Source: Microvenator marinus (GTDB lineage: Bacteria; Myxococcota_A; Bradymonadia; Bradymonadales; Bradymonadaceae). From it: a stretch of DNA of 64,000 nucleotides. Shown here piece after piece: positions 56,353-61,761 of this stretch. The notes below the pieces were generated by a model that made no database searches, was not told where the DNA came from, and saw only the letters and a program-made list of their open reading frames with translations. The translations under genes and the position numbers were made by a program. Numbering within the stretch: the first letter of the stretch is position 1; every line of letters begins with the position of its first letter. The stretch is taken from positions 1,774,001 to 1,838,000 of the forward strand of contig NZ_CP042467.1 of NCBI RefSeq assembly GCF_007993755.1, read 5' to 3'.

Positions 56353-57720
56353 CTAGAGTTTCCAAAGCAAGAAGAGTTGTTCGGTGTAGTAGGACGAAAA
56401 TATGTTCTCTCCGACGTCTGGAATGGTTTGTCTGTCGTAGACGTCGATACCAAAGACGAGCCCGAGGTTGCCGTAGATCGGAACGTGCAGATGTCCGCTC
56501 GTTACGCCGGCATACTCGTTCCCGTCCAATCCGTTTAGGCTGCGAAGAAAGTAGCGAGTGTTCTGGGCGCGGAGTTCAAAATGATTGAACCAACCTGAGT
56601 CGCGATTGCGCATCCATCGAAGCGCTCCAAACGCCCGCACCATGCCTCCCGGACCAAGGCTATAGTTCAGCGCGAAATCCGCCGACGTCAAAGAACTGAA
56701 GCCTCCCAAGGCGATGATATCGGCGTGCGCTCCCGTGCGAAGTCGAAAGTGTTGCCATTCGAACTCCGCCATCAAACTCGCCCCTACAGACGATGTCCCA
56801 ACTTTGAAGATTGGCGTGTCGATGTACGCGTAATGCTGATTCAGACCGAGAACACACGTTCCTCCACAATCGAACTTCCAGCGGGCGAGCAGACCCAGGA
56901 TATCGATCTGACCGCGCTGCGGTTTGCCTTCAAAGAGGTTCAGTGAGCTCGAGAGGGTAAACCAGTCAAAGGGGCGAAAGTCCGAAGTTTGCTGGAGTTC
57001 TCCGTATTCCACGAGCAGGCCGAACCTCAGACTACGTAGCGAAATGGTGCTGGTATCAGATCGAAGTAGGTCTGGGCCAACCATGATCGCCCCTCGGCTT
57101 GGCCAATCCTCGACTCGCTCGCGGTGTTCATTGACCTCGCCGTTGATGACGCGGCTCAAACCATGGGTTGGCGTCAGGAGGCCGGCGCCGATCTCGCGAG
57201 CGATTCGTTCGCCTCCACTTGAATCGGGCTCCATGAGATTCGCCGAAAGTCGATACAACGCCTCTCCTACGGCAATGCCACCGAACGTCGTGGTGATGAG
57301 GTCGTTGTAGGATGGGAGCTCGTTCTCCATGAAGTACTCCCACTGCAGGCTTCCGAAAAACGTGTAAATGCCGGAAACCCAGAAATCATGACCGCTCGCC
57401 CTCGCTGCCGCAAAGTAGAGCTGGCCTTGATAGGGATGGCCCAACTGGTTCGTAGCGAATGCATCGTCGTCCCACTCCCAACCTTCTCGGAAATTCCTTG
57501 CGATGGTTGAAGGGGTGACATCTGAGTAGTCGGAATCAAGGACCAGCCTGCCCCAACCCCAAAAGACGAGGTTGGAAAAGATGATGAGACCTGCCGGCAA
57601 CACGTAATCTTCTACGTCGAGTTCCCGGTCCACGTGAACTGGTGAAGCAGCCCAAGATTGCCCGATCCCCATGAACAGAACCAACACAGATACGAGTATC
57701 CGCGCCCTAATCTCGCTCAT
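56353..57720 (-). CDS. DUF3943 domain outer-membrane protein
   Basis: A 455-residue exported protein from the ATG at 57720 (a TTG at 57747 is the alternative); the signal peptide is LVSVLVLFMGIGQSWA. The DUF3943 pattern is clear at about residues 60-190: HPYQGQLYFAAARASGHDFW, then GSLQWEYFMENELPSYNDLI, TTTFGGIAVGEALYRLSANL, and REIGAGLLTPTHGLSRVING. The remaining half is a beta-barrel-like region with alternating strands. Family members are outer-membrane proteins of unknown role. It lies directly upstream of a second barrel-like gene (0-nt gap). Confidence 0.85.
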   Translation of the reverse strand: MSEIRARILVSVLVLFMGIGQSWAASPVHVDRELDVEDYVLPAGLIIFSNLVFWGWGRLVLDSDYSDVTPSTIARNFREGWEWDDDAFATNQLGHPYQGQLYFAAARASGHDFWVSGIYTFFGSLQWEYFMENELPSYNDLITTTFGGIAVGEALYRLSANLMEPDSSGGERIAREIGAGLLTPTHGLSRVINGEVNEHRERVEDWPSRGAIMVGPDLLRSDTSTISLRSLRFGLLVEYGELQQTSDFRPFDWFTLSSSLNLFEGKPQRGQIDILGLLARWKFDCGGTCVLGLNQHYAYIDTPIFKVGTSSVGASLMAEFEWQHFRLRTGAHADIIALGGFSSLTSADFALNYSLGPGGMVRAFGALRWMRNRDSGWFNHFELRAQNTRYFLRSLNGLDGNEYAGVTSGHLHVPIYGNLGLVFGIDVYDRQTIPDVGENIFSSYYTEQLFLLWKL

Positions 57721-57733
57721 CACTAGATTGCCA

Positions 57734-58630
57734 TTAGCGGTTTTCAATCAATAACCCGTCGTGGAGTGCGTCAAACACAACTCGGATACGCTGGCTCGCC
57801 TTTACTTCTCGATGGGCCGTCAACCAGATTGGAAAAGGAAATGAGACGATGTCTCGCAGCACAGGCACGACCTTTTCTTCGCGCTCACCCACACTCTCCA
57901 TCATCACCCCAATGCCAAGGTCTTGTTTGACCATCTCCCACTGCACCAGTTGGTTAGCAGAGACCACACCAAAATTTGTCGCTCTAAGCCCCATTCCGTG
58001 ATGATTCAGAAGTTCCATCAGCCGACCGTCAAAATCAAAACCCAAGAATCTGGCTTTCCCGAAGTCTTCCACACCATCTGGACTTCCGACCCTTTCAAGA
58101 TAAGCCTTAGTCGCATAAAGGAAAGCCCGTGTATCGCGAACCTTTCTTACCACCAACTCGGGATCCTTCGGTTGGTAGTTTCGGATAGCGATATCGGCCT
58201 GCCGTCGTCTAAGGTCGCTCGTTTGATTGGTCGCGATGACCTCGATTCTGAGCCCCGGATAGGCGTCCAAAATCGCATTGATGATCGGCGGAAGCAGAAA
58301 TGCCGAAATCACCTCACTTGCGCTTATAGAGACCTCGCCCTCTAGAGCCACGGATTGACCAGCAGCAACGCGCGAAACACCTTCGGCCGCCTTGCCCATC
58401 ACCTTGATATGCTCGAGTAACTCCCATCCGCCTTCGGTCAACTCGACGCCTTTGCCTATGCGTTCCACCAGGACCACGCCGAGCTCTTCTTCCAATGCCG
58501 TGATCTGGCGACCAATCGTGGACTGTGTCGTACCCAAGACACGCGCAGCACCAGAAAATGAGCCCGTTTCGGCAGTAAAGAGCAGGGCCTTTGCCCGATT
58601 CCAGTCGAAATTTGATTTCGCCTCATCCAT
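57734..58630 (-). CDS. LysR-family transcriptional regulator
   Basis: A 298-residue regulator (start at 58630; an in-frame ATG at 58642 would add four residues). The N-terminal winged HTH is FDWNRAKALLFTAETGSFSG AARVLGTTQSTIGRQITALE. A type 2 periplasmic-binding-like effector domain follows (EVSISASEVISAFLLPPIIN, YPGLRIEVIATNQTSDLRRR, ADIAIRNYQP). It is divergent from the MDR oxidoreductase gene (105 nt between starts), the usual LysR arrangement, so it likely controls that gene and itself. The effector is unknown. Confidence 0.9.
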   Translation of the reverse strand: MDEAKSNFDWNRAKALLFTAETGSFSGAARVLGTTQSTIGRQITALEEELGVVLVERIGKGVELTEGGWELLEHIKVMGKAAEGVSRVAAGQSVALEGEVSISASEVISAFLLPPIINAILDAYPGLRIEVIATNQTSDLRRRQADIAIRNYQPKDPELVVRKVRDTRAFLYATKAYLERVGSPDGVEDFGKARFLGFDFDGRLMELLNHHGMGLRATNFGVVSANQLVQWEMVKQDLGIGVMMESVGEREEKVVPVLRDIVSFPFPIWLTAHREVKASQRIRVVFDALHDGLLIENR

Positions 58631-59812: not shown

Positions 59813-60430
59813 ATGGCACATGTCGTGATGCAAGCCGCGGAGTTCCCCAGAGTAGAGCTCGCAATCGAAGCAGAGAAGCAACTCGGTGAATTGCGTAAGG
59901 CCTACATCGAGTTCGAAAAAACAGACCCCGACCCTTGGGGTTTTAAGGAAGTTCCTAAGCCGCTCTTGGAGTTCGGGGCACGTCACGGTGTTGATTGGCC
60001 TCACCGAAAGGATGCACGATTCCTACTTAAGGATAGCTTCGACGAGGCTACAAGGCTCATTCGCATAGAGCGAATGGTCTTCTTCTACGGAGGAGGGTTT
60101 GATCTGGGTGGGCCGACCCTTCGTTCGATCTTGAGTGCCATGGGAGCAGAGATCGTGGACGAATTCTGTTACTTAAAGATTCGTAGCGAGACCCCTGACC
60201 AACGGCTGGAGGAATTGGTGGAATTCCTCGAGGATGAAGAGCTGGAAGATCAGTTTGAGATTGATCCCGAAGACCGAGACGACTTCTTACACCTCTTGGA
60301 AATCAAGGGACCTCGGCATTCTAGAATCTTAGGTTTTGACGACTCAGGTGTTTCGGACTGGGCCTTTATCCATTTGATTCCCCAACTAGATGGCGAGGAC
60401 CCATCGTTCATAAGGCGAGAGGAGGAATGA
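59813..60430 (+). CDS. Unknown cytosolic protein upstream of the paralogue trio
   Basis: A 205-residue protein. The ATG at 59813 is preceded by GGAGGT at a 4-nt spacing; a TTG at 59801 is less likely. No signal or membrane segment is visible. There are two parts: a first half with EAEKQLGELRKAYIEFEKTD and a possible DNA/RNA-binding-like MVFFYGGGFDLGGPTLRSIL, and an acidic second half (EFLEDEELEDQFEIDPEDRD). It ends with FIHLIPQLDGED. I do not recognise the family. The next gene begins 61 nt downstream on the same strand, so it may be the first gene of a four-gene cluster. Confidence 0.75.
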   Translation: MAHVVMQAAEFPRVELAIEAEKQLGELRKAYIEFEKTDPDPWGFKEVPKPLLEFGARHGVDWPHRKDARFLLKDSFDEATRLIRIERMVFFYGGGFDLGGPTLRSILSAMGAEIVDEFCYLKIRSETPDQRLEELVEFLEDEELEDQFEIDPEDRDDFLHLLEIKGPRHSRILGFDDSGVSDWAFIHLIPQLDGEDPSFIRREEE

Positions 60431-60491: not shown

Positions 60492-60974
60492 ATGGAATGG
60501 TTTCTATTTGTGAGTGTGATCTTCGCCACGCCACTCTTTGTTGTGGACCATCATCAGACGATGGAGGCCGGAGAAAACGTCGAGGCAACTACCTCCATTC
60601 GGGAAAACCCTCGAATCAGACTCTCAGAGCGTAAGCCTATAACTTTCAAAGACGTGGGCCACCTGCACTACAAGATCCAACTGGACCGTGACAAGCGCAC
60701 ATCTACGCCAACCCAACAGCACAGGGAAAGTCTACGCGAAGTGTTAACGGAACTTGAAGTGATCACCAGCGTACCCCGTCGCCCACGAAACGCTAAGAAA
60801 GGCACGGGAAGGAGTAGCGTTTGGGGCAAAGACGCCGACGTGGAATGGGGCCCAGGCACAATCAACTGGCGACCTCCAAAGACACCCAAACGAAGCCTCG
60901 TTAAATCGAACGATGTGGAAGACCTTGCGACCCACCTGCAATCCAAACGAGCGGCACGAATGGAGGAACCCTAG
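60492..60974 (+). CDS. Member 1 of a tandem paralogue family (two modules)
   Basis: A 160-residue protein of a family I cannot name. It starts MEWFLFVSVIFATPLFVVD, a short hydrophobic leader shared with the next two genes. The mature part is very basic. It carries two degenerate copies of a ~24-residue module: residues 48-69 (KPITFKDVGHLHYKIQLDRDKR) and 132-156 (PKRSLVKSNDVEDLATHLQS then KRAARM). After the first comes a Leu/Glu stretch (HRESLREVLTELEVITSVPR). GGAG precedes the ATG at the usual distance. The stop is followed immediately by the next start. Confidence 0.65.
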   Translation: MEWFLFVSVIFATPLFVVDHHQTMEAGENVEATTSIRENPRIRLSERKPITFKDVGHLHYKIQLDRDKRTSTPTQQHRESLREVLTELEVITSVPRRPRNAKKGTGRSSVWGKDADVEWGPGTINWRPPKTPKRSLVKSNDVEDLATHLQSKRAARMEEP

Positions 60975-61262
60975 ATGGAATGGTTTCTCTACGTAAGTCT
61001 GGTCTTGGCGACACCCCTCTTTGCCGCTGATACATTGCACGCAATAGAAACAGAACGGGCCGACCGGATCGTAAGTAGCCGACGTCCACCAATTAGGTTA
61101 AACGACATACGTTCCAAGGTGACCGAGATTCAGGCGAAACGAGATGCTCGACTCGGGGAAGCCAATGAATTCCACAGTCAGACGTTAGAGGAATGGTTTT
61201 CAAGGTTCGAAGTTCACTGCACCCACGTGCCTCGCAGGGTGCCCCTAGAGAAAGCGAAGTGA
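60975..61262 (+). CDS. Member 2 of the tandem paralogue family (one module)
   Basis: A 95-residue protein, the shortest of the trio. The leader is MEWFLYVSLVLATPLFAADT, possibly cut after FAA. A single module covers residues 38-61 (PPIRLNDIRSKVTEIQAKRD then ARLG) and is followed by HSQTLEEWFSRFEVHCTHVP and RRVP, matching the post-module segment of member 1 (LREVLTELEV ... VPRRPR). The ATG directly follows the TAG of member 1, with GGAGG inside the end of that gene. So the three are likely translated from one mRNA. No known family is recognised. Confidence 0.65.
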   Translation: MEWFLYVSLVLATPLFAADTLHAIETERADRIVSSRRPPIRLNDIRSKVTEIQAKRDARLGEANEFHSQTLEEWFSRFEVHCTHVPRRVPLEKAK

Positions 61263-61269
61263 GGACTTT

Positions 61270-61761
61270 ATGGATTGGTTTTTGTTCGTAAGCTTCATCA
61301 TGGCCACTCCACTTTTTGCGGCAGATACCCTGCACTCGTTGGAAGTTGAGCGTGCTGAAGTGCTTGAGAGACGTAGCCCCATCAACCTTCGGGACGCCTT
61401 GCAAAGAAGACCGCAACTGCAAGAGGCGAGGGATCGACGGTATGGCGCACTGAGTACCCACCGTGTAAAGACAATTCAGGACGTTGAAGTTCAGATGAAA
61501 CCAACCATTAGAGGCCACAGACCTGGCCCTTTTATGGCATGGGCTCCCGACCAACGTCCTCCGATAAGGCTTGACCAGGTGCGCTCAATGGCAACTGAGA
61601 TACAAGCAAAACGTGATGCCCGCATCGGAAGAACACATGAAGTCCGCATATCGAAAGCGAGAGAAATGATTGCTCGTCTTGAAGGCCCCTATATGCACGG
61701 GCGTGCATTCCGCCCGAGACGCAAAGTGCACTCAAACTTTCTACCCAAAGTGTCCGAATAG
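61270..61761 (+). CDS. Member 3 of the tandem paralogue family (two modules)
   Basis: A 163-residue protein. The leader MDWFLFVSFIMATPLFAADT is nearly identical to that of member 2. Module copies lie at residues 36-59 (SPINLRDALQRRPQLQEARD then RRYG) and 97-120 (RPPIRLDQVRSMATEIQAKRD then ARIG); the second is very close to the member 2 module. A His then a Leu/Glu/Val segment follows each copy. It ends basic (FRPRRKVHSNFL). GAGG lies 7 nt before the ATG. It is the last of the trio, 58 nt before the PEGA kinase. No function can be assigned. Confidence 0.65.
   Translation: MDWFLFVSFIMATPLFAADTLHSLEVERAEVLERRSPINLRDALQRRPQLQEARDRRYGALSTHRVKTIQDVEVQMKPTIRGHRPGPFMAWAPDQRPPIRLDQVRSMATEIQAKRDARIGRTHEVRISKAREMIARLEGPYMHGRAFRPRRKVHSNFLPKVSE

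What the first reader, a model, noticed from the sequence alone, without database searches (positions are those of the whole stretch)
60492..61761. Three tandem paralogues with a shared leader and a recurring ~24-residue module: a candidate new protein family
Seen: three consecutive genes whose proteins all begin M(E/D)WFL(F/Y)VS...ATPLF and have a repeated module (consensus PIxLxDVRSxxTEIQAKRDARxG) in copy numbers 2, 1 and 2. Each module is followed by a His and a Leu/Glu-rich stretch ending in VPRR-type residues. Members 1 and 2 abut exactly and member 3 starts 8 nt later. Inferred: duplicated secreted or membrane-associated, strongly basic proteins. The neighbours are an unknown gene in front and a PEGA kinase behind, so they could be surface proteins or kinase partners.
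Basis: partly seen in the sequence, partly recalled or inferred. Interest (0 to 1): 0.8.

Follow-up and report, generated by a model that had tools for sequence, protein, structure and literature searches.

The report
Lineage-specific tandem exported repeat proteins
Three neighbouring genes in a bradymonad-like bacterium (probably a marine predator) encode an undescribed family of small, probably exported, basic proteins built from a shared leader and a repeated ~23-residue helix; the only other members we found are a tandem pair in one related genus, so the family is real but narrow and its job is unknown.

Summary
Three tight same-strand genes (60492-60974, 60975-61262, 61270-61761) share a 19-residue leader and carry 2, 1 and 2 copies of a 23-residue module. 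Paralogue comparison shows near-saturated synonymous change with dN about 0.15, so these are old, protein-selected genes. No match in Pfam, NCBIfam, PHROGs, PADLOC, PDB, phages, plasmids, viral contigs or 84,980 species contigs. New here: distant relatives. In one related genus (G004) two overlapping genes, unlinked to the kinase, encode proteins with the same module and textbook Sec signal peptides. The reverse search with that pair, in 57 genomes of the class, returned only itself and window gene C. In 379 genomes of the phylum the module occurs only in these two genera. The kinase association is not kept: 15 kinase orthologues lack the cluster, and the G004 pair sits elsewhere. Best reading: a lineage-restricted family of small, basic, extracytoplasmic "helix on a flexible string" proteins, the modules acting as binding elements for an unidentified envelope partner or anionic polymer. 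Export is well supported for the relatives and inferred for the window proteins; the ligand is a guess. An orphan family of modest interest, not a new kind of system.

The parts
60492..60974 (+). gene A, 160 aa: leader, module copy at aa 49-71, module copy at aa 136-158 (C-terminal)
60975..61262 (+). gene B, 95 aa: leader, one module at aa 39-61, VPRR tail
61270..61761 (+). gene C, 163 aa: leader, modules at aa 37-59 and 98-120
60492..60548 (+). leader of A, MEWFLFVSVIFATPLFVVD (hydrophobic; probable signal/anchor, poor cleavage site)
60975..61031 (+). leader of B, MEWFLYVSLVLATPLFAAD (probable signal peptide, candidate cut after LFA)
61270..61326 (+). leader of C, MDWFLFVSFIMATPLFAAD
60636..60704 (+). 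module A1 PITFKDVGHLHYKIQLDRDKRTS
60897..60965 (+). module A2 LVKSNDVEDLATHLQSKRAARME
61089..61157 (+). module B PIRLNDIRSKVTEIQAKRDARLG
61378..61446 (+). module C1 PINLRDALQRRPQLQEARDRRYG
61561..61629 (+). module C2 PIRLDQVRSMATEIQAKRDARIG

Best explanation
A-B-C is a tandem, probably co-expressed cluster of a lineage-restricted family of small exported proteins. The leader directs Sec export (B and C probably cut after ...TPLFA; A, lacking a good cut site, may stay anchored). The mature part is basic and mostly flexible, with one or two ~23-residue helical modules ([PA][IVL]x[LF]x(8-10)[ILT]QxxRDxRxG in the clearest copies) as beads on a string. The modules most likely act as repeated binding elements for an envelope partner or anionic polymer, copy number setting avidity. 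Shown: gene reality, selection, modularity, a related tandem pair with Sec-type signal peptides in another genus. Inferred: export of A-C, co-expression. Guessed: the ligand.
For: Leader and modules kept with pS 0.71-0.91 (dS mostly saturated) but dN 0.15-0.18 between paralogues; dN 0.24 between the G004 pair. Profile of A/B/C N-termini hits both adjacent genes of the G004 pair (E 0.007 and 0.024); profile of the G004 pair, in 57 genomes, hits only itself and window C (E 0.015). Alignment score C vs E p about 1e-5, C vs D 2e-4 against shuffles; module matrix from the window finds PVTLPHALQMRRYIQEARDKRTG in E far above 3000 shuffles (33.8, null mean 4.9, sd 3.7). G004 relatives start with canonical signal peptides. 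In both genera one paralogue carries an extra module next to the leader. AlphaFold models: separate helices at the modules (pLDDT about 82-84 in B and in C's second module, about 56-64 in C's first) joined by low-confidence linkers. Tight spacing (TAGATG; 7 nt; ATGA overlap in G004) suggests translational coupling.
Against: The window leaders have no basic n-region (M-E/D-W) and A has no acceptable -3/-1 pair near ...LFVVD, so export of A-C rests on homology and hydrophobicity; no SignalP was available. Each single search hit linking the two genera is weak on its own (E 0.007-0.024 per genome). The modules are not amphipathic helices. Models are low confidence (mean pLDDT 66 and 59, pTM 0.28 and 0.22). 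Nothing identifies a ligand.
Confidence: 0.5

Rival explanations
1. Precursor proteins: the modules, or the stretches between dibasic sites (RR, KR, VPRR), are released by proteolysis as basic peptides acting outside the cell, for instance as antimicrobial or signalling peptides.
For: Repeated conserved units in a variable, linker-like background, export signals in the relatives, dibasic residues around the units, basic charge; probable predator lineage (PMC7460792).
Against: No recognisable maturation, transport or immunity gene beside the cluster in either genome; modules carry many acidic residues and are not amphipathic.
Confidence: 0.15
2. N-terminally anchored cytoplasmic-body proteins (N-out/C-in) that act as adaptors or substrates of the adjacent PEGA kinase.
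For: Acidic N-terminus, short hydrophobic stretch and basic body fit the positive-inside rule for N-out/C-in; kinase starts 58 nt downstream.
Against: No copy near any of 15 kinase orthologues; closest orthologue has a subtilase-like gene upstream; relatives have cleavable Sec-type signals and lie away from a kinase.
Confidence: 0.12
3. The cross-genus link is convergent low-complexity similarity, so A-B-C is an orphan family of one genome.
For: Only two of the 13 genera sampled in this taxonomic family have it, and per-search E-values are marginal.
Against: Reciprocal specificity across 57 genomes, both members of a tandem pair hit, same spacing in the modules, shuffle p down to 1e-5.
Confidence: 0.15
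4. Spurious or decaying ORFs.
For: No database match; rare in relatives.
Against: Near-saturated synonymous change with low dN in both genomes, SD-like sites, intact frames.
Confidence: 0.03

Closest known systems
G004 tandem pair (L078:935-1378 and 1375-2073), unnamed
   Same: Tandem small basic exported proteins with the Q-x-x-R-D-x-R-x-G module at the same internal spacing; one paralogue has an extra module
   Different: Canonical signal peptides, mature N-terminus HVVGV..LPPxPEYERIL, an additional SIAAIQxRRAxRT block, different neighbours
Lineage-specific small exported repeat proteins (general kind, e.g. modular surface or periplasmic orphans)
   Same: Signal-like leader, flexible linkers, copy-number-variable short modules, tandem paralogues
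   Different: No sequence link to any named family in Pfam, NCBIfam, PHROGs, PADLOC or PDB
Multi-core ribosomal peptide precursors (RiPPs)
   Same: Shared leader followed by repeated conserved units, tandem precursor genes
   Different: Leader is Sec-like, no modifying enzyme or transporter nearby; units are long, charged helices

Membership tests
Same family as the G004 pair | Detectable reciprocal profile similarity | tested here: met
   shuffles
Same family as the G004 pair | Tandem, tightly spaced same-strand genes | tested here: met
Same family as the G004 pair | N-terminal export signal | tested here: inconclusive
   canonical in G004; hydrophobic but without basic n-region in the window
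Any Pfam / NCBIfam / PHROGs / PADLOC family | Profile match above curated cut-off, or E below 0.001 where none exists | tested here: not met
   best stray hits E 0.027-0.27; Pfam also empty for the G004 pair
PEGA-kinase partner | Kept beside the kinase in orthologous loci | tested here: not met
Multi-core RiPP precursor | Modifying enzyme or dedicated exporter in the cluster | tested here: not met
   neighbours are LysR regulator, zinc-type dehydrogenase, unknown gene and PEGA kinase; in G004 PDH E1-like, unknown and leucyl-tRNA synthetase
Phage or plasmid cargo | Relatives on phage or plasmid records | tested here: not met

The most novel reading that the evidence does not exclude
A two-genus family of exported modular precursor proteins that releases repeated basic helical peptides used by these bacteria against or in contact with other cells.
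Probability: 0.08. Interest if true: 0.7.

Novelty: new member of a known kind. Interest (0 to 1): 0.35.

Why it matters
It adds an undescribed, selected protein family with a clear repeat grammar, found in two genera of one bacterial family, with an extra module gained beside the leader in one paralogue of each set. If the export reading is right these are candidate envelope or contact proteins of a probable predatory lineage. Without a ligand or phenotype it stays one orphan family among many.

Tried and rejected
Kinase-partner reading: rejected as not conserved. Mobile-element cargo: no phage, plasmid or viral-contig relatives. Weak hits in other genomes were sampled by reading the frames (L006-L011, L013, L016-L018, L020, L077, L079-L082, L088-L090, L092-L095, L104-L109) and are GC-rich shadow frames, out-of-context or unrelated proteins. 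The upstream gene as a fixed partner: its one good orthologue (54% identity, G004 contig 16) is not next to the relatives. RNA families: none. Sigma-70 promoter scan: none found, where shuffles give 1.4 on average, so uninformative. Fold search was not run because both models are low confidence.

Full report
Observation. The three ORFs, their spacing, the common leader and the 2/1/2 module count are all in the sequence. BLAST-type similarity among the three is strong, the only convincing copies in the 5.85-Mb genome are these, and the modules exceed shuffled controls. Two details needed correcting: the VPRR-like ending follows three of the five modules only, and B is only mildly basic.

Are they genes? 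Between paralogues, synonymous positions are at or near saturation (pS 0.71-0.91) while non-synonymous divergence is about 0.15-0.18 in leader and module. That is what long-term protein-level selection leaves, and it argues against chance ORFs and against recent DNA duplication. Each start is preceded by a Shine-Dalgarno-like stretch (read), and no ATG/GTG/TTG lengthens the frames.

Known families. No match in Pfam, NCBIfam, PHROGs or PADLOC or in PDB sequences; no relative in phages, plasmids, viral contigs, or contigs of 84,980 bacterial and archaeal species. The contig scans find only close relatives, and the tools note that near relatives of the window genome may be left out of those collections.

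Relatives. A single-protein search of 58 genomes (own and relatives) gave nothing convincing. A profile of the three N-termini hit two neighbouring stretches on one contig of G004, a genome of the same family but another genus. They are two overlapping genes, D (147 aa) and E (232 aa), with classical signal peptides. E holds PVTLPHALQMRRYIQEARDKRTG, close in sequence and identical in spacing to PINLRDALQRRPQLQEARDRRYG of C, plus a further copy, and D one more. Scores beat shuffles (C-E p about 1e-5; module matrix). The reverse search with D/E returned, in 57 genomes, only itself and window C. A profile of eight module copies found, in 379 genomes of the phylum, five copies in the window genome and three in G004 (these eight are the copies it was built from); the six other hits (E at least 0.0016) are not credible on reading the frames. 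I therefore treat A-E as one family, with some reserve because each linking hit alone is marginal.

Context. The kinase downstream has good orthologues in most genomes of the family, but none of the 15 regions fetched holds the cluster (one weak tblastn match of C in L069, E 0.002, lies about 4 kb from that kinase, is split in two pieces and was not followed further); in G004 a subtilase-like gene precedes the kinase. D and E lie on a different contig between a PDH E1-like and a leucyl-tRNA synthetase gene. The gene in front of A has one good orthologue, again elsewhere in G004. So the cluster travels with none of these neighbours.

Mechanism. AlphaFold on three sequences gives helices over the leader and over each module, joined by low-confidence linkers (B: H3-34, H42-82; C: H3-34, H40-73, H101-137). 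The modules are hydrophilic, rich in R, D, E and Q, and not amphipathic, which argues against a membrane-active helix and for a helix recognised by a partner. With signal peptides in D and E and TP[LA]FA-type leader ends in B, C and D, the likeliest picture is an exported, flexible, basic protein with one or more helical binding elements. Export is supported only by sequence, and the binding partner is a guess.

Organism. The window genome is one 5.85-Mb contig whose family includes single-contig genomes of 5.0 and 8.0 Mb. The literature reports three complete bradymonad genomes, strains FA350, V1718 and YN101, in an order with genomes of 5.0-8.0 Mb (PMC7460792). I infer, without a direct test, that the window comes from a bradymonad, possibly strain V1718; the predator description rests on that inference.

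Noticed in passing
L078:935-1378 and 1375-2073 (G004 contig 17): Both relatives would expose an N-terminal histidine after signal-peptide cleavage (AFA|HVVGV, ASA|HVVGV), as some copper-binding exported proteins do; the window proteins do not share it.
   Followed up: no
59819-60430: Unknown ~203-aa gene in front of the cluster with one good orthologue (54%) in G004 and only a weak PIN-domain hit (E 0.055).
   Followed up: partly
L058:3314-5965: Large subtilase-like gene directly upstream of the closest kinase orthologue in G004 (by reading the translation; no profile run).
   Followed up: no
L069:1491-1683 (minus strand): Weak two-piece tblastn match of C (E 0.002) about 4 kb from the kinase orthologue of G013; probably chance, not read further.
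   Followed up: no
L010 (G036 contig 102), near 1501-1713: Frame with a short tandem peptide repeat (HFDGRSLV/FFDGRSL) turned up as a chance hit.
   Followed up: no
L097:2515-5960 (minus strand): Two adjacent Cys-rich lipoprotein-like genes with long Asn-rich (NNxNN) linkers after the N-terminus; another of the same style lies after the kinase in L058.
   Followed up: no
56353-57747 (minus strand): DUF3943 protein next to a LysR-type regulator, divergent from a zinc-type dehydrogenase gene.
   Followed up: no
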